The translations under genes and the position numbers were made by a program. The notes under the pieces were generated by a model that saw only the letters and a list, made by a program, of their open reading frames with translations, was not told the DNA's origin and searched no databases. From NCBI RefSeq assembly GCF_000331305.1, contig NZ_KB217478.1, positions 614,904-678,903 of the forward strand: 64,000 bases of DNA, given 5' to 3'. This stretch comes from Calothrix sp. PCC 7103. Its GTDB lineage: Bacteria > Cyanobacteriota > Cyanobacteriia > Cyanobacteriales > Nostocaceae. The stretch's first letter is position 1, and each line of letters opens with the position of its first letter. Shown here one piece after another: positions 29,481-56,491 of this stretch.

Positions 29481-32400
29481 ATGACGGGAGATTCGTTTCG
29501 ATACAAAGTCGGCGGATGCCTTCAGGCGGATGCACCCAATTATGTAGTGAGGCAAGCAGACCGACAGCTTTACAACGCACTTCGGGCAGGAGAGTTTTGC
29601 TACGTGTTTAATGCGCGACAGATGGGTAAATCATCGTTACTGGTGCGAGTGAAGCGACAACTTCAACAGGGTGGGGCACAGTGCGCGTATTTGGATATGA
29701 CTCGATTGGGTAGCGATAACATCACGCGCGATCAATGGTATCGCGGCATTATAATCAGCCTGTATCATAGTTTTCAGCTACCTAGTACTGTGAGTTATCG
29801 AGACTGGTTTGCTACCCATGCAGACATATCCTTGGTTCAGTGTTTGACGGTATTTGTAGAAGAAGTTTTATTCGTGCAATTTCCTGAGACACCAATCTAC
29901 ATTTTTATTGATGAAATTGATAGTCTATTAAATCTAAAATTTTCCACTGACGATTTTTTCGCGTGGATTCGGGCTTGTTATAACCAACGAGCGCATAATA
30001 TTTGTTATCAACGCTTGAATATTGCCCTATTTGGTGTGACAACACCCTCCGATTTAATTACTAATAAGCAACGTACACCTTTCAATATCGGTCATGCAAT
30101 CCAGTTAGATGGGTTTACTTTTGCAGAAGCCGCACCTTTGGCAGCAGGACTCAAGGCTGTGGTAGAAAACCCTGTTATCACGCTTCAGGCTATCCTTCAT
30201 TGGACGGAAGGACAACCTTTTCTCACCCAAAAGATCTGCCAGCTTGTGGTTTATGTCGCTGAAAAAGCGGAAAGGTCATCACTTAAGATTTCTTCCGATA
30301 TAGAAATGTTGTCGATAGATGAGTTTGTCAGATCTTATGTACTAGATAACTGGGAAATTCACGATGAACCAGTGCATCTGCGAACCATTCGGGATCGCTT
30401 GTTCTGGAATGAAAGCCGCACCGGACGATTGCTGGGTATTTATCAGCAACTCTTGCACGGAGAATTGGTTCCCTTGGACGACAGTCGAGAGCAAATTGAA
30501 TTATTGCTGTCAGGATTAGTCATACGGCAAAGCGATCACTTGGCAATTAAAAATCGGATTTATCAGCGTGTTTTCAATCTGGATTGGGTAAACCAGAAAT
30601 TAAACCGTTTACGTCCCTATGCAGTTGCAATTAATGCTTGGGTTGCTTCCCAACGTAGAGATACATCCAAACTATTATGGGGAAAATCTCTGTTGGAAGC
30701 ACAACAGTGGGCGCAGAATAAAAGCCTTAGCGATCTAGACTACCAGTTTCTTGCTGCCAGTCAGGATGCAGAACGGCAGGTGATCCAGCAGCAACTTGAA
30801 GTACAGGAGGAAAGTGAACGATTCTTTCGGCAGCTGGCAGAAGCAATGCCCCAGGTCATGTGGATTGTCGAGCCAGATGGTACGCTATCTTATACTAACC
30901 AGCAAGGAACTACCTTTTTAGGGCAAACACTGTCTGAGGTAGCGGACTGGAAACGGCTGGATTTAATTCATCCCGATGATCGCTCTACTAGCCTCGCTGC
31001 CTGGGCACATTCGCTCTCGACGGGGGAAACCTACGAAGCGCAACTAAGAATACGAGATAGCGAGGGAAAGTATCGCTGGTTTCTCAATCGTGCAATTCCT
31101 ATGCGGGATGTTAACAATCAGGTAATCAAATGGTTTGGCACCAGCACAGACCTGGATAACCTGAAACGCGAAGAAGAAGTTCGGCGCCTGCAAGAAGTTG
31201 AGAAGCGGCTTCGACAAGAACAGCGCGCGAGTCGCTTGCAAAAGTGGCTGCTAAGAAGCATTAGTCTTGGATTTGTCATTGCAAGTTTACTTGGATTTTA
31301 TGCCTTTGCTCAAAACCACGAAGCCACTTTACGAGAAATTGAGGCGATCGCTAACGTCTCCGAAGCTCAGTTTGCCTCCGGGAATCGATTAGATGCTTTG
31401 GTCAGCGTCATTAAAACGCAGACCAAGTTGGGCAAATTAGCAAATGTACCTATTAAATTAGCCACTAAGATAAATCTCGATCTACGTCGTGCTACCTTTC
31501 AGGTAGTTGAACGCAATCGCCTGAATGGTAGTAAGGGTAAAGTGCGAGCTGTTGCTATCAGTGCCGATGGGTGCCTAATTGCTGCTGCTCACCAACTGGG
31601 TGCAATTACCTTGTGGGGAGATCATGGTGTCTTGCTAAAGGTACTCAATGGTCACAAGGGAGAAGTTTTTGATGTCACCTTTTCCCCCAAAGGAGATAAG
31701 TTGATTTCATCTGGGCAGGATGGCATGGTGCGTGTATGGAAGCGAGACGGTACACCGATAAAGACACTTAAGGGACATCAAGATTCGGTACGCTCAGTGG
31801 ACATTAGCGCTAACGGAAAATGGATTGCCTCAGCTAGTAACGACGGCACAGTCAAACTTTGGAGTATCGATGGCGCCTTGATTCACACTCTAAAGGGGCA
31901 TAGTGATGCAGTTGGGAAGGTGGCGTTTAGCCTCGATAATCAACTTCTAGCCTCCGTTAGTGACGACAATACTCTCATCCTCTGGGACTTGAAGGGTAGG
32001 AAAATTCGACAACTAAATAATCCAATTGTAAGTAAAAGAGGGAAAAACCGTCTGGTCAGCGTAGCTTTTAGTCCCGACGGTCAGACCATAGTAGCAGGCG
32101 ACTGGATTGGTAATATTTTGTGGTGGACTAAGGATGGCGCCCTATTGGAAACTGCCACACGACATGATAGTAGTGTTGTGACATTGGCCTTTAGCCCCGA
32201 TGGCAAAAGTATGGCTTCAGCCGGTTGGGATAATACGATTAAGCTGTGGAACAGTAATAGAAACCTTAATAAAACCTTGTATGGCCATATTAACGGTACG
32301 TGGAAGGTTGCTTTTAGTGCCGATGGTCGTCGCTTGGTTTCCGGTGGCGAAGATTCTTTGGTGCGGTTGTGGCAATTTCAACCGGATTTTTTAACAATAT

Positions 32401-33389
32401 TGCGGGGTCATAGTGCCTCTGTCTGGCACACCTCGATTAGCCCTAATGGGCAAACAATTGTTTCCTCAAGTACTGATGGAACCATTAAACTTTGGAATCG
32501 AGCGGGAAAACTCCTCAATACGTTAACTCCACCACCCGGACAGGTTTGGTCAGTTGATATAAGCCCAGATGGCAAAGAGATTGCAGCAGCTAGCGATGAT
32601 GGTTCGTTGACCTTATGGACGATGAAAGGCAAACGCTTACAAACCATCTTGGCACATAACGCAACAGTGCGCGATGTGGCGTTTAGTCGGGATGGAGCAG
32701 AAATAGCTACCATCAGTTGGGACGGTACAGCGAAGCTCTGGCGCCGGGATGGCACTTTGCTCCAAACCCTGAGTGGGTCGCTACCCAAAAAGCGCGACCG
32801 ACTTAATACCGGAGCATTTAGCCCTGATAACCAATGGTTAGCCATTGGGGGTCGAGATACCTTCGTTCGACTCTGGCGCCGGGACGCGACCGGAAAGTTT
32901 CCGTCTCAACCGCAGCTCACTATAAAAAGTCATAATGAAGCCATTTGGGATGTCGCTTTTAGCCCTGATGGACAGATTTTTGCCACAGCCAGTGAGGATA
33001 AAACAATCAAGCTGTGGTCATTAAACGGCAAATTAATTCGTACTATTCCCGCCCACACAGATCGGGTAAATGCAATCACATTTATCCCGCCTCATTCTGG
33101 ACTCCCCAACAGCTGGGGTACCGTCCTAGCTTCTGCGGGTTGGGATAATACTGTAAAACTTTGGTCATTAGATGGCACCCTGCGGACAACCTTAGAAGGG
33201 CATGAAGAGCGGGCACTCGATGTAGCATTTTATCCAGCCACGAGCAACCATAAACCACTATTGGCATCTGCTGGTCTCGATGATGTCGTGATTCTCTGGC
33301 AGCTAGATCAAGTCTTAGATATGAAACAGGTAATGCACTCTGCTTGTATCTGGGTACCTCACATCTTGCACCAAAGTATAAATACTTAA
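29481..33389 (+). CDS. AAA-PAS-WD40 multidomain signalling protein
   Basis: A 1302-residue protein. Residues 1-~400 are an AAA-like (AAA_35) NTPase with P-loop [12 protein letters not shown] and Walker [13 protein letters not shown]. Residues ~445-565 are a PAS/PAC sensor ([27 protein letters not shown]). A membrane helix is near 592-612 ([17 protein letters not shown]). Residues ~683-1290 are about 14 WD40 repeats (for example [30 protein letters not shown]). The propellers probably form two rings binding partner proteins. This architecture is typical of filamentous cyanobacteria and is usually placed in signal transduction or NACHT-like surveillance. The last ~12 residues come from an inserted inverted-repeat element, so the original C-terminus is probably lost. 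An ISL3 element ends 47 bp upstream and may have displaced the promoter. Confidence 0.85.
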
Positions 33390-47293: not shown

Positions 47294-47588
47294 CAGATTG
47301 CTGTGTAGGAAGAACAGTTGTTGATTGTTGGGTTTGGGCAGTCCCTGCAAATCATGATCTGGCTACTGTTGGATAGTTTTGTGCTGTGGTTCTTGCGGCA
47401 AGCCCTAATTCGTAACAGGAGGCACTGCAAGCCTATCATACCAATGCTTTTACCTTGGAGCGAATGCTTAAGTAAGTGCCATTCATGTCTACTATCTGTG
47501 AAGCACCATCTCTAACATCCCTACCCCTGGCGCCTTCAAAAAAACCAAGCGAAAATAGAATTTGGTACAGTTGAATGGTGGGGGCAGT
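47294..47588. other. Degraded coding fragments before the WGR gene
   Basis: Short broken frames read LLIVGFGQSLQIMIWLLLDSFVLWFLRQALIRNR and, after a frame change, EALQAYHTNAFTLERMLK-stop (about 47420-47475). They look like gene debris but I cannot name a family. The first GGCGCC after the HIP1 block is at about 47529, so the block boundary probably falls here. The WGR gene promoter should be near 47500-47588. Confidence 0.4.
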
Positions 47589-50500
47589 ATGAAATTAATC
47601 AAGCGGACGACGCTGCATTATCGCGAAGGTACATCTGACAAGGTTTATGAAGTAGATATTTGCCAGACTGGTGAAGCGCAGTATGTTGTGAACTTTCGTT
47701 ACGGGAAACGTGGTGCCACTTTAAAAGAAGGTGTCAAAACTACCCAAGCTGTACCTTTACTAGAAGCAGAGCGAGTATTCGACAAGCTTGTTCAAGAAAA
47801 AACTAAAAAAGGATATCAAGATGTATCCACTCCCGCACCTACAACTCAAACACAACCAGTAGCAATATACAAAACTCGTGAAGAAGCTATATTAACTCGT
47901 CTTGCCAATACCCAACCGAGTAAATGGAAGTTAGAAAGAGCAATATGGCGCGCGGGTGAACTTAGAATTAAAGAAGCGGCGCCTTTACTCATCAACCTTA
48001 TCGGAACAGGTGAGCCTTTACGCGATTATTGCATAGCTTGGTCATTAGGATACTGTGGAAGTCAAGAAGCTATCCCCGTACTTATTCAACTTTATCAAAA
48101 TGCATCTTCACCTGAATTTGTAAGTCGAATAGCATTTGAAGCGCTCTTACAACTTAGTGATACTCGCACCAAAGCTGAGTTACAAGCAGAAATGATAGAG
48201 TTTTTGCCCAAAAATTTACAAAAGTTAGCACGTAATGGTTCGGCAGAAAGCTTTGCCTCAGAACTCGACCATTATTTTAAGCGTGGAGATTATAAGAGTT
48301 TTGCACTTCTTAAGAAAATTTATCAAATAGATAATAATCATGTTCGTCCAGTATTACTAGAAATATTACGTACAGCTCCATACAAACCTAATTATTTCAA
48401 GCATCTGCGACATATATTCAAAATGGCAGAGTATCGTTATGATGCTGAAGTATTCAGTATTTTTGCTTATCGATTTGAGAAAGAACAAGGGACATTTGAC
48501 AACGATAATAACTATTGGGAATGGAACCCTACTACTCAAAGATATAGCAAGGTTGAGAAACGGCGCCACGAAGACGAGTTAAAAAGTCCAACATCAACAA
48601 AAGCATATAGTAATCAAACTCAAGCGTACTTACAGCGAAGAATTTGGCGTACACTCAAACAATTGGGAGAAGAAGGCGCCGTAGAATATGTAAATATGGC
48701 AGCTAGCGTCTTGCTTCAATATTCAGATGCAGACGCAGAACCAGTTAGAGAAACAAAATTTTATCGTTGGAACCGTTCTAATTGGAGTCGAGTCGAATTT
48801 AGCAACACTTGGGATGCATATGCTGGTTACATAACTTTTAATCATATCTTGTATGAGAATAGTGCGCGCTACGAATTAAAAACAAACTCCAAAGCATGGA
48901 AATGTAAAGCAGGATATAAACTGGGTACACCAGAACCGAAACGTGAAGAAGCATTTCCAAAATTGTGGACACAACACCCGCAGGTATTACTCAGACTATT
49001 ACTACAAAGTCAATGCTCTCCAGTTCACGAGTTTGCCGTCAAAGCACTGCGAATATGTACTAGCTTCCATACATCTATAAGTATAGATAATATTATTCAA
49101 CTCCTTCAAAAGTCCTATGAAGTCACTGCACAGTTTGCATGTGAATTAGCACAATATAATTATAATCAACAAGAACCTAATATCGAACTCGTCTTAGCTG
49201 TAATTAACAGCGCATCTCAAACAGCAAGAAGTGTCGCTTATCAGTGGATAGAAGGCAACCGCGAGTTTTTCTTACAAGATACTAACTTTATTACAGCTAT
49301 AATCGTCAGTACACACAATGATACTCGTAACTTCGCGAAAAAACTCCTAAGTGCAACAGTAATTAATGACACAACTGCGCGAGTTTTGTTAGGAAGAATA
49401 ATTATTGAATTGTTAGGATTTACACCCGAAGCACCAACTGAAATTATCAAAGAAATTAGCGAAATATTACTGATAAGCTTTGCTCCCCAACTGCATAAAT
49501 TAGGGATGAGTGTAATTAATGACTTACTAGCACATCCAGTATTAGAAATTCAAGAATTAGGCGCCCGTATTTTACTCAACCATCAAACTAGTGCTGAAAA
49601 CCTACCTAGCAATACTATAGAATCATTATTAGCATCATCATACGAAACATTGCGAGTTATTGGAATTCGATTATTTGGACAACTACCCGATGCCAAACTG
49701 CTAGAAGACAGTACCTTAATTATTGCAATGGCAATAAATCCTAACCCTGAAATACGCAACGCTATTAAACCAATTATCCATAGATTAGGCGCCGCTCATC
49801 CAGACTTCCAAATAGACGTAGCACATGAATTTATCGAAATATTACTAACTCCAGAACAACACGAAGGAGTGCATAGTTACCTACTCCACCTCCTCCAAGA
49901 ACAACCAGGATGGATGATAAGTATTACTAAAAACACAGCATTACCCTTACTCCAAACCAAATCATCAGCAGCACAAGAACTTGGAGGACTACTACTCCAA
50001 GCCAACCTAAACACATGGGTATCTCAATTTACAACCAGCGAAATAGTCAAACTGAGTAACCATGAAATAATGGCAGTTCGACAAGCAGCGCAACAAATGC
50101 TATCGCTAAACATAGAAAAATTTCGCAATAATCCCGAAGAACTAACTATCGCAGTCAAAACACTAGAAGCAAAATGGCAAGACACACGCGACTTCGCATT
50201 TAACATATTTACCACCCAATTCGGCGCCCAACAATTCACCCCTCAAGTACTAATCTTCATTTGCGACAGCGTAAGAGAAGAAACCAGAAAATTTGGCAGA
50301 GACTTACTAACGCAAAACTTCCAAACCCAAGACGCAGAACAATACCTTCTCAAATTTAGCGAACACCCTTCCTCCGACATGCAAACCCTAGTCACCAACT
50401 ACCTAGAAAACTACGCCACCGACAACCCCCAACGCCTACAGCAACTAACACCATACTTCACAACAGTACTATCAAACATCAACCGTAGCCGACCAGCCAA

Positions 50501-50708
50501 ACAACGCATCTTCCAATTCCTTCACAACGAATCACAAAAAAGCGAACAAGCAGCACAAATAGTAACAGAAATAATGACCCGTCAATCCCTCACCATAGCC
50601 AAACAAGACAAAGCCACCACCCTACAAATAATGCTAACAATCCGCAAAAAATACCCACACCTATCGAGTCCCCTCCACATCCTCGCACCAACCGAAACCA
50701 GAACCTAA
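47589..50708 (+). CDS. WGR-domain HEAT/ARM-repeat protein, retron-associated
   Basis: 1039 residues from ATG at 47589 (an in-frame start at 47562 adds nine residues before the domain). Residues 1-~75 are a WGR domain (KLIKRTTLHYREGTSDKVYEVDICQ, YVVNFRYGKRGATLKEG), a fold found in PARPs and MolR-type proteins and linked to nucleic-acid binding. The rest is alpha-helical repeats of HEAT/ARM type (ILTRLANTQPSKWKLERAIWRAGELRIKEAAPLLINLIG, REETRKFGRDLLTQNF). No enzyme motif was recognised. The SWIM protein gene follows 56 bp later. WGR-HEAT plus WHSWIM next to a retron reverse transcriptase fits, from memory, the accessory pair of type XIII retrons. Confidence 0.8.
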   Translation: MKLIKRTTLHYREGTSDKVYEVDICQTGEAQYVVNFRYGKRGATLKEGVKTTQAVPLLEAERVFDKLVQEKTKKGYQDVSTPAPTTQTQPVAIYKTREEAILTRLANTQPSKWKLERAIWRAGELRIKEAAPLLINLIGTGEPLRDYCIAWSLGYCGSQEAIPVLIQLYQNASSPEFVSRIAFEALLQLSDTRTKAELQAEMIEFLPKNLQKLARNGSAESFASELDHYFKRGDYKSFALLKKIYQIDNNHVRPVLLEILRTAPYKPNYFKHLRHIFKMAEYRYDAEVFSIFAYRFEKEQGTFDNDNNYWEWNPTTQRYSKVEKRRHEDELKSPTSTKAYSNQTQAYLQRRIWRTLKQLGEEGAVEYVNMAASVLLQYSDADAEPVRETKFYRWNRSNWSRVEFSNTWDAYAGYITFNHILYENSARYELKTNSKAWKCKAGYKLGTPEPKREEAFPKLWTQHPQVLLRLLLQSQCSPVHEFAVKALRICTSFHTSISIDNIIQLLQKSYEVTAQFACELAQYNYNQQEPNIELVLAVINSASQTARSVAYQWIEGNREFFLQDTNFITAIIVSTHNDTRNFAKKLLSATVINDTTARVLLGRIIIELLGFTPEAPTEIIKEISEILLISFAPQLHKLGMSVINDLLAHPVLEIQELGARILLNHQTSAENLPSNTIESLLASSYETLRVIGIRLFGQLPDAKLLEDSTLIIAMAINPNPEIRNAIKPIIHRLGAAHPDFQIDVAHEFIEILLTPEQHEGVHSYLLHLLQEQPGWMISITKNTALPLLQTKSSAAQELGGLLLQANLNTWVSQFTTSEIVKLSNHEIMAVRQAAQQMLSLNIEKFRNNPEELTIAVKTLEAKWQDTRDFAFNIFTTQFGAQQFTPQVLIFICDSVREETRKFGRDLLTQNFQTQDAEQYLLKFSEHPSSDMQTLVTNYLENYATDNPQRLQQLTPYFTTVLSNINRSRPAKQRIFQFLHNESQKSEQAAQIVTEIMTRQSLTIAKQDKATTLQIMLTIRKKYPHLSSPLHILAPTETRT

Positions 50709-50711
50709 ACC

Positions 50712-50738
50712 CCTCTGCGTCCTCTGCGTCTCTGTGGT
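50712..50738 (+). repeat. Dispersed CTCTGCGTC-CTCTGCGTCTCTGTGGT motif
   Basis: A common cyanobacterial dispersed sequence located between the WGR and WHSWIM genes; related copies lie at 12939-12955 and 58370-58416. Here it sits inside a likely operon, so it would be part of the mRNA. Confidence 0.6.
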
Positions 50739-50764
50739 AAAAAACTCAACCTCCAAAAAAACCA

Positions 50765-52402
50765 ATGCAATTCAACTACACCTACAAAAACAACACAACC
50801 GTCCAAGAAAATGGCACCAACACCCAAATGTCATTTTCACCCGACACCACTCGTCCTCCTACATACTTCATCGGAGAACTGCGACAAAACATAGCATTTC
50901 GCGAAGCAATAAGTGCCCTACACGATGTCGTAATCTCCGACCTACGCTTCACACCCAAAGACAAAACAGCATACAAAGAATGGCGTAAACAACAAGAAGA
51001 CCTTAACTGGGACTTAATAGCAGCAATGCGTCAAGATGTTGCGACAAAAATCCAAACCCTGCAACAAGAATACAATCAATTAACCAAACAAAGTTACGAA
51101 AGAATGGCGCCATTTTACGCAGCCAGACAAAAATACTTTAATTACCTATACGAAAAAGACCGAGACGCATGGTTTGTCCTTGACCCAGTAATCACAGTAC
51201 ATCCAGACGAAGTATTCTTTGAATGCTTTAGTATAGACGAATCGAGCTACGGGCGCCTAAGTGCCAGCTACGAAGTCTTCAAAATCAACGAATTTGCTTG
51301 TGGAACAACAAACGTAGACTACTCAGCATCACTATACGAAGAATTTCAAAAAATCCGTACCTACAAAACCACCGAACTCAAAGTAGACCCATCCGGATTT
51401 GAAGTAGAAACCACCAACGAAGAAGCATACAAAGAAGTAAAAATAGACTTACCCGACACCTGGGTACGTGGCTTTTTACAAGTAAGTTCAGCAATGTGCT
51501 TACCCACAATTCAATTCGACCTACACCCTACCGACATCTATAATATGTGCTTCATACTGCGGCGCCACAAAGAAAAACAAGGACCCCGCAGTATACGTTA
51601 CCATCTCGAACCAGGAAAACCCATCCGTATCGTATTTGAACCCTGGAACATTGAATTAACCTGTCCCCGTTCACCATACCTTGGTTCCGAACCACAAACA
51701 ATAAGAGTATGGGGACGTAGGCGTCTCTTAATCCTCGAACGTCTTATACCCATAGCCAAAAAATTCACTGTTCATTTACTAGGAACAGGAATGCCATCAT
51801 TTTACATTGCCGACCTAGGCGACATGTCATTTACTCTAGGATTATCAGGATGGACAGCGAACGACTGGTCAACATCAGGAAACTTCGACTTAATGGCGCC
51901 ACGTGCTTCGGTTGACGAATGGACACAAACACAAATATTTAACGCACTACGTGAAAACTGGGTAGAAACAGCAGACGATTTAGCAAAACGACTAAAACTA
52001 AGCCGTGCAGCCATTACAGGAGCATTAAGTGTTTACACACAAGCAGGACGTGTAATATACGACTTAAACAAAAAAGTTTATCGCATTCGCGAACTAAGTC
52101 GTGACCCCTTACCAATAGACAGACTACGCTTTGCGAACGAACGTGAAGAAGGCGCCACAAAGTTTTTAGCGAACAACGCTATTCAAATAACATCAGTCGA
52201 TGACAGTAATAACAGACTAACAATACAAGGCAATGTTAAAGACAAACAAAAAACTTACACACCATCTTTGACGATTGATAATGACGAGCGTATAATTGGA
52301 GCAGAGTGTACTTGTAACTGGCACCAACAGAACAAACTGTTTAAAGGGCCATGCGAGCATATTCTCGCCTTACGAATGCAACATAGTCGTGGGCGCCAAT
52401 AA
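50765..52402 (+). CDS. Winged-helix SWIM zinc-finger protein (WHSWIM), retron-associated
   Basis: A 545-residue protein. The N-terminal ~390 residues have no recognised domain (landmarks TYFIGELRQNIAFREAISALHDVV and WFVLDPVITVHPDEVFFECFS). Residues ~395-450 form a winged helix (IFNALRENWVETADDLAKRLKLSRAAITGALSVYTQAGRVIYD). The C-terminus carries a SWIM zinc finger, Cys515-x-Cys517-x12-Cys530-x-His532 (ECTCNWHQ, GPCEHILAL). SWIM fingers bind DNA or proteins. It pairs with the WGR-HEAT gene upstream and lies 2.7 kb before the retron reverse transcriptase. A comparable WGR plus SWIM pairing exists in the E. coli yeh cluster, there with MoxR and VWA genes that are absent here. Confidence 0.85.
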   Translation: MQFNYTYKNNTTVQENGTNTQMSFSPDTTRPPTYFIGELRQNIAFREAISALHDVVISDLRFTPKDKTAYKEWRKQQEDLNWDLIAAMRQDVATKIQTLQQEYNQLTKQSYERMAPFYAARQKYFNYLYEKDRDAWFVLDPVITVHPDEVFFECFSIDESSYGRLSASYEVFKINEFACGTTNVDYSASLYEEFQKIRTYKTTELKVDPSGFEVETTNEEAYKEVKIDLPDTWVRGFLQVSSAMCLPTIQFDLHPTDIYNMCFILRRHKEKQGPRSIRYHLEPGKPIRIVFEPWNIELTCPRSPYLGSEPQTIRVWGRRRLLILERLIPIAKKFTVHLLGTGMPSFYIADLGDMSFTLGLSGWTANDWSTSGNFDLMAPRASVDEWTQTQIFNALRENWVETADDLAKRLKLSRAAITGALSVYTQAGRVIYDLNKKVYRIRELSRDPLPIDRLRFANEREEGATKFLANNAIQITSVDDSNNRLTIQGNVKDKQKTYTPSLTIDNDERIIGAECTCNWHQQNKLFKGPCEHILALRMQHSRGRQ

Positions 52403-52412
52403 ATAAATAATC

Positions 52413-52675
52413 GTGTAAGCGCGCTGGTAAAGATTCCTTGCAAATTGGGCGGTGTATCGCCGTCCGTGCATTCAGTCTATACACACATCACTAGTCTACT
52501 CTTGACTGTGCGGTCTTACTAGTACTATGCGCGTTCCAGTTTGACTTATTATAAAGTGAACGGGCGCATAGTACTAGTGACCGCTTGAGTTGAGTAACCT
52601 AGTCCCCAGAGATTTACGAAGGGAAACCAGCGCGCAAACACGACATTTTCGTAATAAGCACTTCAGTGCTTACAC
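52413..52675 (+). ncRNA. Candidate retron msr-msd RNA
   Basis: Ten bases past the WHSWIM stop codon. GTGTAAGC (52413-52420) is complementary to GCTTACAC (52668-52675) and could be the a1/a2 pair; pairing may extend through CTG/CAG. Inside are GGCG-GTGTAT-CGCC (52448-52461), within a TGCA/TGCA pair (52439-52470), as an msr-like hairpin. A long imperfect hairpin runs 52491-52602 and includes ACTAGTACTATGCGC (52518-52532) pairing exactly with 52564-52578, GCGGTC/GACCGC, GTTC/GAAC and TACTC/GAGTA. This order, outer pair, short hairpin and long hairpin, is that of retron RNAs. Against it: the RT gene is 2.4 kb away and the 3' arm overlaps a common palindrome. Not verified by folding. Confidence 0.4.
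52655..52672 (-). terminator. TAAGCAC-TTCA-GTGCTTA palindrome
   Basis: A perfect 7-bp stem with a four-base loop ending at the stop codon of the minus-strand PG-binding gene. It could terminate that gene. Similar AAGCACTTCAGTGCTT palindromes are common in cyanobacterial intergenic DNA. It competes with the proposed a1/a2 pairing of the candidate retron RNA. Confidence 0.45.
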
Positions 52676-53184
52676 TAACACCCACCATAATAAGTAGCAA
52701 AACAGTTATCAACATGAGAATCAAGCTTAATTAAAGCATCCCAAGACTTGGCGCCTAAAACTCCATCAGCAACCAAACCAAAATGTGCTTGAAAATCCTT
52801 AACAGCTTGCACAGTCAAAGTACCAAACACACCATCAATTGCGCGATTATAAAAACCAGCACCAGACAAAGCTTGTTGAACTGCCTTTATAACACTTCCA
52901 GTACTATTTAACCGTAAAACAGGTAAACTAGCGGCGCCATTACAAATAAAATTCCAAGTAGCTGCATCCGCAATTCCACTCACACTTAAAAAACCAAGGC
53001 ACTGCAAATACCTAACAGCAGTTTCAGTTTCAGCACCAAAATCACCATCAACCGCAACTTCTAAAGCAGGTGTATAAATAGCAGCCAAACGTTGATTCAA
53101 ACGCTTTTGCATCTCCTTAACATCTTGACCATTATTACCAAGTCTTAAAGTAGGCTTAAAAGTAGGGCATTGAATAGCAGTCAT
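52675..53184 (-). CDS. Protein with two peptidoglycan-binding domains
   Basis: 169 residues from ATG at 53184, preceded by GAGAGATT; an in-frame extension to 53241 looks non-coding. Two PG_binding_1 modules: residues ~13-78 (LRLGNNGQDVKEMQKRLNQRL, DGDFGAETETAVRYLQCLGF) and ~88-152 (LRLNSTGSVIKAVQQALSGAGFYNRAIDGVFGTLTVQAVKDFQAHFGLVADGVLG). No signal peptide or catalytic domain. It lies on the opposite strand between the WHSWIM and RT genes. Downstream of the Tudor-like gene on the same strand, but a strong terminator at 53262 separates them. Confidence 0.85.
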   Translation of the reverse strand: MTAIQCPTFKPTLRLGNNGQDVKEMQKRLNQRLAAIYTPALEVAVDGDFGAETETAVRYLQCLGFLSVSGIADAATWNFICNGAASLPVLRLNSTGSVIKAVQQALSGAGFYNRAIDGVFGTLTVQAVKDFQAHFGLVADGVLGAKSWDALIKLDSHVDNCFATYYGGC

Positions 53185-53261
53185 GTCTTTAATCTCTCGA
53201 CAAGTTTTGAATTTACATAACCAAACTACAAGCACCCTCAAGACAATTCCAGAAAAATAAT

Positions 53262-53279
53262 GGTACCCTCAAGGGTACC
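53262..53279 (-). terminator. Intrinsic terminator of the Tudor-like gene
   Basis: GGTACCCT pairs with AGGGTACC around CA; on the minus strand the stem is followed by ATTATTTTTC. It lies 18 bp past the stop codon of the gene at 53297. Confidence 0.8.
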
Positions 53280-53296
53280 TTACTGTTTAAGAGAAA

Positions 53297-54607
53297 TTAG
53301 CACATTTCATCCAAATCAACCCATTCATCGTAAGATGAATCGTAACCGACATACTGCACAAAATATTGCTGACCTTGGGTTTTTCCAATAATTGCTGAAT
53401 ACCAATCTTCATTATCTTCATCCCAAACTTTGACTTTATCACCGACCGCGTACCCATTTTCATCAGAGGAACTTTGGTTACGAATACGGATATCTTCCTC
53501 ATCAACCCATTCATCACCAGATGAACCTTGACCAACGTAATGTACAAAGAACCGCTTCTCTTCCATTTTCTCAATCGTTGCTCGGTACCAATCCTCTTCT
53601 TGTGAATCCCAAACCTCTATTGTTTGACCTAACGCATACTTATTGCTTGTATCTGAGCTTGCAGCAGATAAAATATCTTGTGGAGCTTTTGGAGCTGCTT
53701 GAATTTCTGCCTTGGCTAAAGCATGAGCTTGCAAAATCAACTTACGAGCTACTGTTTGAATTCCCGTGTGTTCGTAATAATTAGTGGTTTGGTCTAAGAA
53801 TGCAGCTACAAAATCTAAGTTATCATCTGCAATTTGAATAAAATTACCCAAATTGCTAAAAATAGATTGGGGTGTTACACCTGTCTTAGAAACTAAATTA
53901 CCCATCCAACCCTGTACCGAGTTAAAACCCTGAGTCACAAAACCAAGTTTATCAGAAGGGCTGCCACCTGGAAGAGAACTACTTATAGTTGAGAAAAGAG
54001 GATTTTGAGTAATTACGCTTGTATCGGCACCTTGTATAATTTCTTGGATTTTGGTAAGAAAATCAGGACCTAAAGGTAAAATTCCATCAAGACAAACCAA
54101 AGCAACCATCCGCATTAAAGACGCATCTTGGTAGTGATTGCCAAGAGAATTAGCAAATTCTTGTGGATTTGGTTGTGGAATACCGTTGAGTTTGGAAAAA
54201 GCAATGATTTCAATTGCGATTTTTAAGACTAAATCAATCGTTTGAGTTACATCTGCCTTGGGAGTAATGTTGCTCAAAAAAGAGAGAAAGCCAATTTTTT
54301 CGCCAACTTTATTTGCTAAAGCAGCCGTTGCCATCGCCGTATCAGCTTTATCAATCGTTTGATACAATCTTACCGCTGTTTGGTAGCCTTGTTGTGGGTC
54401 TTCATACAACCTAACAGCGTTCTGGCGAATTTTTTGAATTACATTAGCATCGGTTTCTCCCGTAATAGTACGGATACTATTGTCAAATCCCAGCAGATTA
54501 CTCCACTGACCTGGCGCCACAAAATCAAGAGCCTTTAATACCTTGACAGTAATATTATCATTGGGTAACTCATCAACCAATTGAATTATCGATTTATCCA
54601 TAGCCAA
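53297..54607 (-). CDS. Helical protein with two C-terminal Tudor/Agenet-like domains
   Basis: A 436-residue protein. Residues 1-~300 are mostly helical with no recognised domain (IIQLVDELPNDNITVKVLKALDFVAPGQW at the start). The C-terminal ~115 residues contain two similar modules: YALGQTIEVWDSQEEDWYRATIEKMEEKRFFVHYVGQGSSGDEWVDEEDI and YAVGDKVKVWDEDNEDWYSAIIGKTQGQQYFVQYVGYDSSYDEWVDLDEM. The pattern VxVWDxxxxDWYxAxIxxxxxxxxxVHYxGxxxxxDEWV is that of Agenet/Tudor-knot/chromo-barrel folds, which bind modified peptides or nucleic acids in eukaryotes. In bacteria the ligand is unknown. It lies between the retron RT and its likely partner genes, divergent from the RT. Confidence 0.75.
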   Translation of the reverse strand: MAMDKSIIQLVDELPNDNITVKVLKALDFVAPGQWSNLLGFDNSIRTITGETDANVIQKIRQNAVRLYEDPQQGYQTAVRLYQTIDKADTAMATAALANKVGEKIGFLSFLSNITPKADVTQTIDLVLKIAIEIIAFSKLNGIPQPNPQEFANSLGNHYQDASLMRMVALVCLDGILPLGPDFLTKIQEIIQGADTSVITQNPLFSTISSSLPGGSPSDKLGFVTQGFNSVQGWMGNLVSKTGVTPQSIFSNLGNFIQIADDNLDFVAAFLDQTTNYYEHTGIQTVARKLILQAHALAKAEIQAAPKAPQDILSAASSDTSNKYALGQTIEVWDSQEEDWYRATIEKMEEKRFFVHYVGQGSSGDEWVDEEDIRIRNQSSSDENGYAVGDKVKVWDEDNEDWYSAIIGKTQGQQYFVQYVGYDSSYDEWVDLDEMC

Positions 54608-54639
54608 TTATTAAATCCTCACATAGTGTTTACTGTCAC

Positions 54640-55090
54640 AATCAGATTCAGTTGTGTCCAGGAAGTAACACAATGAGCTGAACCTATCACTAGGTTTCCC
54701 ATATATGGAAGCAAAATAACTTTTTATGACTAATTTTAAGATTCATTACAAACATCCTGTAATCTGGCAATACATCTGTATATTAATTATCCCTATTTTT
54801 TATTGGGTATGTGCTGCCATAAATTCAAAGGCGGCAATAATCTAAGAATCTTCTTATAAAATGATTGAAACTAAAATGATTGAAACTTAGAAGCATATTT
54901 ATAGTTGTGAAAAAAATTTTCCTCCACACCTACCCAAAATAGGGAAACTGCGAATACACTGGATAAAGCTCACGCGGATTATCAGCAAGTAACAACTTGC
55001 AACCCGGACGGGTTAACCTAAATTTGTCATTATAAAACAGGATATAGATAAACCCGCCCCCACGATAACTCCTCATTTTGCACTACCGCT
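54640..55090 (+). other. Hairpin-rich leader upstream of the retron RT
   Basis: Between the divergent Tudor-like and RT genes. Successive perfect or near-perfect hairpins are TTGTGT/ACACAA (54652-54673), AACCTA-TCAC-TAGGTT (54681-54696), ATTACA/TGTAAT (54745-54763), TGCTGCC/GGCGGCA (about 54813-54836), CTGGATAA/TTATCAG with one bulge (54959-54985), GCAAGT-AACA-ACTTGC (54985-55000) and AACCC-GGAC-GGGTT (55001-55014). A 15-bp direct repeat AAAATGATTGAAACT lies at 54858-54872 and 54873-54887. Retron RNAs usually lie here, so this is an alternative site for the msr-msd RNA. No typical ribosome-binding site is seen just before the RT ATG. Confidence 0.4.
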
Positions 55091-56491
55091 ATGTCTGACC
55101 AACCCCGCACCCGTCAGGAACTCTACGACCGCATTCGCCAAACAGGGAAAGACGAATTTATCCTGGAAGAAATGATTCGTTTCGGATTTTGGGCGCCCCA
55201 AGGTACAATACCTGAAGACCCAGCAGACGAAATTCGGCATCAAGGAGAAATACGACGCGAGTTAGAAAAACTACGTCAACAAAGCAGTCAGCTTCGCAAT
55301 GAAAAAGAATTGCGAAAGCAAATTTTAAAGCAGCGTCTAGAAGAGTCGCGACGCAAACAGAAAGAAACCAAAGAACGACGCGAAAAAGAACGGCTCGAAC
55401 GCGCAGCAGCATGGCAAGAGAAAAAACAAAAAGATATCATCTACCTTGGGGAAGATGTATCAGGCGGGTTAAATAACACTGAAGCAAATATCGAAAGATT
55501 GCAAAGTCATAACTTACCACTTTGCAACACAGCCCTAGAAATTGCAGAAGCAATGGGAGTCAATATTGGCAAACTCCGTTTCTTAGCCTTCAACCGTAAA
55601 ACTTCCACAATATCTCATTATATTCGCTTCAAAGTTCCCAAAAAAACAGGTGGAGAAAGACTAATATCGGCGCCAATGCCCAACCTCAAGCAAGCACAAT
55701 ACTGGATACTAGAAAACATACTCAATAAACTCGAAGTACACGATGCTGCACATGGGTTTCGCAAAAATCGTTCTATCATCACCAACGCAAACCCCCACGT
55801 CGGCGCCGATGTTATTATAAACTTCGATCTCAAAGACTTTTTTCCCTCAATATCTTACAAACGAGTCAAAGGACTATTTCAAAGCTTTGGTTACTCAGAA
55901 GCAGCAGCAACAATCTTTGGCTTAATTTGTACCGCTGCCGACATCGAAGAAGTCGAACTCGACGGTAAAACATATTACGTAGCTTTAGATGACAGACACC
56001 TTCCCCAAGGTTCACCAGCAAGTCCAGCCATCACTAATTTACTCTGTCGTCGTTTAGACCGACGTTTACAAGGTATGGCAGAAAATATTGGATTTACCTA
56101 TAGTCGTTACGCAGATGATTTAACCTTCTCAGCCAAAAGCGAAAATCGGCGCCACATATGTAATATCATGAGACGCACAGAATCAATAGTAGCCCACGAA
56201 GGTTTCAACATAAATCACGATAAAACCCGCGTTCTACGCAACACAAATCAGCAAGAAGTTACAGGCATTATCGTCAACGAAAAACTAAATATATCCAAAA
56301 AAGTCCTCAAGAAATTTCGCGCCACCTTACACCAAATCGAACAAGAAGGATTTCAAGGAAAACATTGGGGTAACTCTCATGATACACTCGCAGCAATCAC
56401 CGGATTTGCCAACTTTGTCGCAATGGTCAACCCTGAAAAAGGCGCCGAATTTCAACAGCAATTACAACGCATCAAAAAGAAACGTAAATAA
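55091..56491 (+). CDS. Retron-type reverse transcriptase
   Basis: A 466-residue RT. Residues 1-~135 are an N-terminal extension with a strongly charged coiled coil (~45-118). The RT fold follows: HGFRKNRSI, the retron signature NAxxH at 232-236 (NANPH), motif A NFDLKDFFPSI with Asp246, LPQGSPASPAITN, the catalytic YADD at 340-343, and VTG at 390-392. NAxxH and VTG together distinguish retron RTs from group II intron, DGR and Abi-type RTs, and no maturase or endonuclease domain is attached. It should reverse-transcribe an msr-msd RNA into multicopy ssDNA. The WGR-HEAT and WHSWIM genes nearby suggest type XIII, from memory of the published classification. Confidence 0.9.
   Translation: MSDQPRTRQELYDRIRQTGKDEFILEEMIRFGFWAPQGTIPEDPADEIRHQGEIRRELEKLRQQSSQLRNEKELRKQILKQRLEESRRKQKETKERREKERLERAAAWQEKKQKDIIYLGEDVSGGLNNTEANIERLQSHNLPLCNTALEIAEAMGVNIGKLRFLAFNRKTSTISHYIRFKVPKKTGGERLISAPMPNLKQAQYWILENILNKLEVHDAAHGFRKNRSIITNANPHVGADVIINFDLKDFFPSISYKRVKGLFQSFGYSEAAATIFGLICTAADIEEVELDGKTYYVALDDRHLPQGSPASPAITNLLCRRLDRRLQGMAENIGFTYSRYADDLTFSAKSENRRHICNIMRRTESIVAHEGFNINHDKTRVLRNTNQQEVTGIIVNEKLNISKKVLKKFRATLHQIEQEGFQGKHWGNSHDTLAAITGFANFVAMVNPEKGAEFQQQLQRIKKKRK

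What the first reader, a model, noticed from the sequence alone, without database searches (positions are those of the whole stretch)
47589..56491. Retron locus with WGR-HEAT and WHSWIM partners (type XIII-like)
Seen: an RT with NAxxH (232-236), YADD (340-343) and VTG (390-392), plus a WGR/HEAT protein and a winged-helix SWIM zinc-finger protein in the same 9-kb island. Known, from memory: retron type XIII is defined by an RT with ARM/HEAT and WHSWIM proteins, and retrons act as antiphage toxin-antitoxin systems. Inferred: this is a tripartite defence system in which the RT with its ssDNA restrains the WGR-HEAT/WHSWIM effectors. The unusual point is that the RT is split from its partners by two opposite-strand genes.
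Basis: partly seen in the sequence, partly recalled or inferred. Interest (0 to 1): 0.85.

Follow-up and report, generated by a model that had tools for sequence, protein, structure and literature searches.

The report
Scattered retron with a clamp-like partner
This cyanobacterial locus is a retron, a bacterial system thought to copy an RNA into single-stranded DNA; in many of its relatives the parts are scattered around the chromosome yet kept in the same genomes, and one partner protein is predicted to have the shape of a DNA sliding clamp, which offers a lead to how this type could work.

Summary
PADLOC's models name the three proteins WGR_XIII, SWIM_XIII and RT_XIII, so this is a type XIII retron.

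(1) A candidate template RNA was found: an msr-msd-like RNA at window 52411-52643, beginning 9 nt after the SWIM stop codon and not beside the RT. It shows strong covariation and an a1/a2 inverted repeat. A truncated second copy lies just upstream of the RT, so the two 'intruding' genes sit between two RNA copies.

(2) The split is not a local oddity. In 150 related genomes all four parts co-occur in 35 and no genome has the RT without the others. Yet 17 of 38 RT loci are unlinked from SWIM, by 0.6-1.4 Mb in three genomes where both lie on one contig. The 92-row RT tree needs at least 12 changes of linkage.

Reverse transcription, defence and toxicity are inferred, not shown. The founding type XIII paper was not available, so I cannot say whether it describes this RNA.

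The parts
47562..50708 (+). WGR-HEAT protein (1048 aa from TTG; ATG at 47589): WGR domain about 47613-47825, then HEAT/ARM solenoid to about 50651
   Evidence: WGR_XIII 1239 bits; Pfam WGR, HEAT_2; AF2 pLDDT 87, mostly helical after a small beta domain
50765..52402 (+). WHSWIM protein (545 aa): predicted sliding-clamp (PCNA-like) fold about residues 34-363 (50864-51853) with a helical insertion at about 68-131, then a winged-helix-like part (about 385-441), then SWIM zinc finger (C515, C517, C530, H532)
52411..52643 (+). msr-msd-like template RNA: a1 52411-52428, msr hairpin 52447-52465, msd long hairpin 52510-52584, a2 52626-52643; model core 52435-52626
   Evidence: fold z-score -7.98, 0 of 200 shuffles as stable; covariation score 0.421 vs 0.145 shuffled
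52675..53241 (-). inserted gene: peptidoglycan-binding domains; not part of the conserved system
   Evidence: found only in loci of the same genus among 48
53297..54607 (-). inserted gene: C-terminal Tudor-knot/Agenet-like domains; not part of the conserved system
   Evidence: window and 3 congeners of 48 loci
54972..55011 (+). truncated second copy of the template RNA (5' part only); full-length at this place in three congeners (L034, L038, L040)
   Evidence: (18.5 bits, model 2-43)
55091..56491 (+). retron reverse transcriptase (466 aa) with about 130-residue charged N-terminal extension; NAxxH, YADD, VTG intact
   Evidence: (RT_XIII 669.9 bits)

Best explanation
The locus is a complete, probably functional type XIII retron in which the template RNA belongs to the partner operon and the RT can work in trans. 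SHOWN by sequence: WGR-HEAT, WHSWIM and the RNA lie head to tail, the RNA beginning 9 nt after the WHSWIM stop codon, and the RT is a separate downstream gene. The RNA has the parts of an msr-msd (a1/a2 inverted repeat, msr hairpin, long msd hairpin) with strong covariation. All four parts are co-inherited whether or not they are neighbours. SHOWN by structure prediction only: WHSWIM carries a PCNA-like DNA-clamp fold followed by a winged-helix-like part and a SWIM zinc finger. INFERRED: the RNA is transcribed as the 3' end of the WGR-SWIM message; the RT reverse-transcribes its msd into a hairpin DNA that stays bound to the RT; this RT-msDNA particle binds and holds the WGR-HEAT scaffold and the clamp-like WHSWIM. 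When a phage disturbs the msDNA or the replication machinery, the clamp-like protein is released onto, or competes at, replication forks and blocks phage (and host) DNA synthesis. Rough odds: RNA is the RT's template 0.93; all four parts act together 0.95; anti-phage role 0.6; clamp-like protein acts at replication or DNA 0.45.
For: Identity: PADLOC models, retron RT motifs invariant in 28 of 28, best solved relatives are retron Ec86 RT chains. RNA: folding z -7.98; 28 of 49 pairs with a two-sided change, 94.3% of cells paired, 0 of 500 shuffles reach the covariation score; cognate a1/a2 duplex stronger than the mean of 25 non-cognate partners in 100 of 104 RNAs; RNA 3' of SWIM in 71 of 80 named loci, within 100 nt in 55. 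Dependence: RT, SWIM, WGR and RNA together in 35 of 150 genomes, RT without the others in 0. Unlinked in 17 of 38 RT loci; the RT tree needs at least 12 changes of linkage. Breadth: of 17 non-cyanobacterial SWIM loci, 16 have SWIM, RNA and RT in a row and 15 of these also have WGR upstream (L253 none found; L254's contig ends after the RNA). Clamp fold.
Against: No msDNA, transcript or phage data. The priming site is unclear: the CAGC context reported for two myxococcal retrons is at the expected place in only 13 of 35 RNAs and not in the window's. SWIM, WGR and RNA exist without a detectable RT in G029 (1 of 150). Of 25 further SWIM genomes searched, two draft MAGs show no RT: G153 (RNA present) and G174 (RNA not found either). 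A strict toxin/antitoxin pair should not tolerate that, though assembly gaps are possible. SWIM is very conserved among the best 80 loci (63-97% identity; 39-49% in two remoter ones), which fits housekeeping as well as defence. No other complete defence system was recognised among 41 of 45 window proteins scanned. The clamp fold rests on one AF2 model with mean pLDDT 71, poor in parts of the first clamp domain, without a sequence-level clamp match.
Confidence: 0.72

Rival explanations
1. A genome-maintenance system, not a defence system: the RT makes a hairpin DNA that works with a clamp-like protein and a WGR DNA-sensing scaffold in replication-fork repair or recombination.
For: Clamp fold; WGR is a DNA-binding domain in PARPs (recalled); high SWIM conservation (A4 mean column identity 76%, drawn from the best 80 loci); parts scattered in the genome; 1 of 72,556 plasmid records and 0 of 50,697 phage records carry a SWIM relative.
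Against: Patchy presence: 35 of 150 relatives, with congeners differing; the msd stem is the most variable helix of an otherwise conserved RNA; retrons are described as bacterial immune systems (start of abstract of PMC12548924).
Confidence: 0.25
2. An ordinary linked type XIII retron; the scattered relatives are assembly artefacts or chance pairs of unrelated parts.
For: 16 of 17 non-cyanobacterial SWIM loci are compact with the RT, the 17th contig ends too early; several cases sit on short contigs (8 of 92 tree rows were left as 'unsure').
Against: RT and SWIM lie on one contig but 1.42, 1.19 and 0.64 Mb apart in G065, G087 and G133; in Moorena bouillonii WGR, SWIM+RNA and RT are at 2.65, 7.55 and 1.86 Mb of one 8.26-Mb contig; co-occurrence 35 of 35.
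Confidence: 0.05
3. The window copy is decaying: the second RNA is already truncated and foreign genes have been inserted.
For: Copy B of the RNA lost all but its 5' part; window and L033 show different deletion ends.
Against: All three ORFs are full length with intact motifs, and RNA copy A is complete and well paired; the five congeners with this locus keep copy A as well.
Confidence: 0.06
4. The peptidoglycan-binding and Tudor-knot genes are further components of the system.
For: The first gene lies inside the locus in all six loci of this genus that carry the main copy (window, L033-L035, L038, L040), the second in four of them.
Against: Not found in any locus outside the genus nor in the genus's second copies (48 loci incl. 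window); opposite strand; another ORF occupies the slot between two RNA copies in L037.
Confidence: 0.05

Closest known systems
Retron type XIII (PADLOC models RT_XIII, WGR_XIII, SWIM_XIII; class named in Mestre et al. 2020, not held, so its content is recalled)
   Same: All three protein models match nearly end to end.
Retron-Nex1 (Ne160) of Nannocystis, as described in PMC6868368 (passages read)
   Different: The passages read describe no partner genes or co-inheritance; here the RNA usually lies behind the SWIM gene and the RT is retained elsewhere in the genome.
Retron-Mxa1 (Mx162) and Retron-Sau1 (Sa163) (PMC6868368, passages read)
   Same: Extended RT N-terminus; reported 241-nt transcript with a 162-nt msd for Mx162 against about 233 nt here; the review groups these RTs with two cyanobacterial ones.
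   Different: RNA model R1 hits only 10 of 58 Myxococcaceae genomes (strict filters), so it is probably not the Mx162 RNA, which I recall as widespread in that family.
PCNA / phage and bacterial sliding clamps
   Same: Two-domain clamp fold in the WHSWIM model.
   Different: No sequence-level match seen; carries a helical insertion, a winged-helix-like part and a SWIM finger; ring formation and DNA binding untested.

Membership tests
Retron | RT of the retron clade with NAxxH, YADD and VTG | tested here: met
   Motifs invariant in 28 of 28 aligned RTs; best PADLOC, PDB and NCBIfam matches are retron RTs (NCBIfam ones below their curated cut-offs).
Retron | msr-msd RNA with a1/a2 inverted repeat, msr hairpin and long msd hairpin | tested here: met
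   Predicted structure and covariation.
Retron | msr, msd and RT in one cassette (Figure 1 legend of PMC6868368; the same review names Ne160 as an exception) | tested here: not met
   In the window the full RNA ends about 2.45 kb before the RT with two minus-strand genes between; only a truncated copy is next to the RT. In 30 of 32 unlinked relatives no RNA was found beside the RT.
Retron | Conserved priming guanosine context | tested here: inconclusive
   CAGC at the expected place in 13 of 35 RNAs, not in the window's.
Retron | Branched RNA-DNA product (msDNA) | not testable with these tools
   Needs nucleic-acid extraction from cells.
Retron type XIII | RT_XIII with HEAT/ARM(-WGR) and WHSWIM partners (definition recalled; models from PADLOC) | tested here: met
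   669.9, 1239.1 and 811.5 bits.
Retron type XIII | Anti-phage activity | not testable with these tools
   Needs phage challenge.
Sliding clamp (PCNA-like) | Two-domain clamp fold | tested here: met
Sliding clamp (PCNA-like) | Recognisable sequence homology to clamp families | tested here: inconclusive
   No clamp family among the Pfam matches listed for the 47 SWIM proteins at E<=1, but only 25 of 36 families are shown; the PDB profile search gave one unrelated marginal hit.
Sliding clamp (PCNA-like) | Ring formation around DNA | not testable with these tools
   Needs biochemistry or a multimer structure.

The most novel reading that the evidence does not exclude
Type XIII is a modular retron that works in trans: template RNAs belong to the partner proteins (encoded right behind them, sometimes several per genome, also behind lone HEAT-repeat paralogues), one RT located anywhere in the genome serves them all, and the partner it controls is a dedicated sliding-clamp relative that acts at replication forks.
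Probability: 0.4. Interest if true: 0.92.

Novelty: new variant of a known kind. Interest (0 to 1): 0.8.

Why it matters
Retrons are described as single cassettes (PMC6868368, passages), and finders such as PADLOC use gene neighbourhood (PMC9252829, passages), so scattered retrons could be missed. Here scattering gives something useful: parts that stay together across genomes without being neighbours very probably depend on each other, which is stronger evidence of joint function than gene order. The predicted clamp fold turns the partner of a retron type for which I found no mechanism in the papers I could search into a testable protein: does it form a ring, bind DNA, or bind clamp-dependent replication proteins? 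If true it would link retrons to the replication fork. The RNA model also makes it possible to find and test type XIII templates for ssDNA production.

Tried and rejected
1) Rfam: no match reached a gathering score around the window locus; the msd hairpin drew only a microRNA-hairpin model at E 0.96; in four myxobacterial/acidobacterial loci and one Archangium stretch no retron family came up. 2) Idea that this RNA is simply the Mx162 RNA of myxobacteria: not supported, R1 hits 10 of 58 Myxococcaceae. 3) Idea that the two intruding genes are components: rejected, confined to the genus. 4) Defence island: 41 of the 45 window ORFs were scanned with PADLOC (10 at E<=0.01; 31 at E<=1e-10). Besides the three retron proteins there was a partial HEAT-ARM_XIII match (29481-33386), one MzaA match, one PDC-M28B match (1.7e-11) and three matches in the flanks (C3a206 2.2e-25, BovA 0.0013, RT_UG36 0.0059); no complete further system. 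5) Fold search of the WGR-HEAT model gave generic helical-repeat proteins with rmsd of 20 or more: uninformative. 6) K-mer enrichment in msd stems: the interval chosen included conserved msr sequence, so that output was not used. 7) Literature: retron+WHSWIM+HEAT, retron+ncRNA+WGR and retron+unlinked+effector+ncRNA gave no paper; retron+type XIII gave one, which only lists PADLOC output for a Variovorax strain (passage); retron+sliding clamp gave 7 listings, none on this by title and abstract start; the retrons/SWIM/WGR search showed 15 of 37 listings, none on this; some searches gave listings used as leads. In PMC12548924 the terms XIII, SWIM, WGR and HEAT do not occur in the main text. One section of PMC8867640 was read: it calls a Trichodesmium RT a retron, without partners in that section. 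The founding type XIII paper is not held, so absence from print is not claimed. 8) An RT-SWIM co-phylogeny test against a housekeeping gene was considered and not run. 9) A SWIM tree was not built.
Full report
OBSERVATION. The window lies in a large cyanobacterial genome (11.6 Mb in 12 contigs). PADLOC names them WGR_XIII (1239 bits), SWIM_XIII (811.5 bits) and RT_XIII (669.9 bits; next model 324.6). The RT motifs NAxxH, YADD and VTG are at the stated residues and invariant in 28 aligned relatives from several phyla. The two genes in between are real: a peptidoglycan-binding protein and a protein with Tudor-knot/Agenet-like domains, both on the minus strand.

THE MISSING RNA. A retron needs a template RNA. 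Aligning sequence upstream of 38 RTs (window and L031-L067) showed a conserved element of about 220 nt in part of them. A profile of it found the window copy directly behind the SWIM gene; the covariance-model core is 52435-52626. The window RNA folds far better than shuffles (-106.5 kcal/mol, z -7.98, 0 of 200). It has an outer a1/a2 repeat (52411-52428 with 52626-52643), an msr hairpin (52447-52465) and a long msd hairpin (52510-52584). On 30 aligned RNAs, 28 of 49 pairs show two-sided changes, 94.3% of cells are paired, and the covariation score is 0.421 against 0.145 in shuffles and at most 0.094 when the partner is slid; on 35 RNAs a separate RNAalifold structure has 14 of 34 pairs with two-sided changes. 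The structure was derived from the alignment, so the slide control leans in its favour, and the shuffle control does not keep relatedness. The msd stem is the variable part: 18 of its 19 pairs change on both sides. Among 104 distinct RNAs (at least 55 bits, not at contig edges) the cognate a1/a2 duplex is stronger than the mean of 25 non-cognate pairings in 100 (the window's RNA is represented by its identical copy L095). Rfam has no matching family.

WHERE THE RNA SITS. It begins 9 nt after the SWIM stop in the window. In the 80 named SWIM loci, an RNA above 50 bits lies 3' of SWIM in 71, within 1 kb in 64 and within 100 nt in 55. In this genus a second copy stands just before the RT: full in L034, L038 and L040, reduced to its 5' part in the window (54972-55011). 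Window and L033 show different deletion ends. The 'intruding' genes therefore sit between two RNA copies. Arrays occur elsewhere: four tandem RNAs in an acidobacterial locus (L237; G181), two in L037, L168, L170, L171, L199 and L226. Several HEAT-repeat paralogues are followed by their own RNA (L154-L156, L158, L162, L167); the two scanned (L156, L167) have no Pfam WGR match, and one paralogue (L159) has no RNA beside it. The window's own genome has one full copy.

SCATTERED YET CO-INHERITED. The three protein families and the RNA model were searched in the same 150 relatives. Weak RT matches are common (114 of 150 at E<=0.001), so thresholds were set: RT at least 600 bits (there is a gap between 631 and 540), WGR at least 900 bits, SWIM near full length, RNA at least 80 bits. 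Dropped rows: the decayed locus G024 from the protein sets, and weak RNA hits in G033, G059 and G082. Kept although imperfect: the SWIM of G076 and the WGR of G092 each read in two pieces. Result: RT 35, SWIM 36, WGR 36, RNA 37, all four in 35; no RT without the others; G029 has all but the RT. Fisher p-values there are 1e-32 to 1e-33 but ignore relatedness. A fairer look is within genera of mixed status: in 8 genera (g1, g9, g18, g20, g45, g57, g77, g80) all four parts are present or absent together, and in one (g24) only the RT differs (my reading of the tables). In four of the eight (g9, g18, g45, g80) the carrier has its parts at separate places.

Of the 38 RT loci in those 35 genomes, 21 have SWIM nearby and 17 do not. 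Contig breaks do not explain this: on single contigs RT and SWIM are 1.42 Mb (G065), 1.19 Mb (G087, Calothrix parasitica NIES-267 by position), 0.64 Mb (G133) and 27 kb (G130) apart. Of the 80 named SWIM loci, 33 hold no RT. Six of these belong to panel genomes, one (L254) ends too early and was left out, and 26 were given to a search; 25 could be searched and 23 have a full RT elsewhere. I counted 15 of those as clearly unlinked and 8 as unsure because contigs are short. In Moorena bouillonii WGR (2.65 Mb), SWIM with RNA (7.55 Mb) and RT (1.86 Mb) lie apart on one contig, while in Moorena sp. SIO3I8 they are contiguous. In ESFC-1 all four parts are apart: RT 2.30, RNA 3.41, SWIM about 3.46, WGR (partial match, model 200-970) 3.52 Mb.

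In the 32 unlinked cases an RNA lies within 1 kb 3' of SWIM in 24, at 2-5 kb in 2, and beside the RT in 2. It is elsewhere in the other 4: ESFC-1, G140, and two (G165, G168) where it is not within 10 kb 3' of SWIM and is on a contig other than the RT's. RT flanks examined for an RNA were up to 9 kb for 17 loci and up to 1.5 kb for 15. Two of the 8 unsure cases also have the RNA beside the RT (L276, L283).

TREE. An RT tree of 92 rows (52 linked, 32 unlinked, 8 unsure) has its 14 non-cyanobacterial rows all linked and the unlinked rows spread through the cyanobacteria. Among the 84 rows of known state at least 12 changes are needed (quick search, SH-aLRT only, 30 of 89 inner branches weak; well-supported branches alone force at least 9 changes of the 'linked' label). 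Some changes may be re-linkings. The compact order WGR-SWIM-RNA-RT, found in 15 of 17 non-cyanobacterial loci, is most likely ancestral and separation recurrent.

DISTRIBUTION. The SWIM scan found 569 stretches encoding relatives in the GTDB contig set, of which only the best 80 were kept. Plasmid records: 1 of 72,556 (Methylobacterium, 49% identity); phage records: none of 50,697.

READING. The anatomy is that of a retron whose template is attached to the partner operon and whose RT can act from anywhere. I infer that the RT-msDNA particle controls the WGR-HEAT/clamp-like pair. Defence is likely by analogy with other retrons; genome maintenance is the main rival. RT loss with partners retained (G029; possibly G153 and G174, the last without RNA as well) is evidence against a simple lethal toxin, unless those assemblies are incomplete. 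What I could not establish: msDNA, priming site, toxicity, phage effect, ring formation, and whether the founding type XIII paper (not held) already describes the RNA.

Noticed in passing
L154, L155, L156, L158, L162, L167: HEAT-repeat paralogues of the WGR protein followed by their own copy of the template RNA; the two scanned lack a Pfam WGR match. Possible extra partner modules served by the same RT.
   Followed up: partly
L237:11723-12698: Four tandem copies of the template RNA with different msd stems between SWIM and RT in an acidobacterial MAG.
   Followed up: partly
L306 and L307 (Nannocystis): Lone partial RNA matches (72.7 and 37.5 bits) far from the canonical locus, with no RT, WGR or SWIM match in the fetched 16-17 kb; they may correspond to the RT-less msr-msd repeats reported for Ne160 in this genus.
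   Followed up: partly
L160 (G024): Decayed type XIII locus with fragments of RT, SWIM and WGR and an RNA copy.
   Followed up: no
L308 (Planctomycetes genome G184): A remoter relative of the whole set: WGR-like, SWIM (39% identity) and RT (41%) in a row, besides the closer copy L263.
   Followed up: no
window:29481-33386: 1302-aa protein with a partial match to a PADLOC HEAT-ARM_XIII model (E 3.1e-45, best stretch on model positions 133-295 of 1972); probably generic HEAT repeats.
   Followed up: partly
window:1-39656: One of 31 proteins matches PADLOC MzaA (E 1.3e-47); which one was not identified.
   Followed up: no
L068-L077: Shorter or partial RT relatives (540 bits and lower for RT_XIII) without the N-terminal extension and without WGR/SWIM nearby, some in long fused ORFs; weak RNA-like matches in L071-L074.
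   Followed up: no
window:53297-54607: Bacterial protein with C-terminal Tudor-knot/Agenet/MBT-like domains.
   Followed up: no
window:50001-52000: Strong strand asymmetry over the SWIM gene (GC skew -0.29, AT skew +0.31), the extreme of the window at this step.
   Followed up: no
window:60338-62716: CHAT plus CHASE2 domain protein.
   Followed up: no
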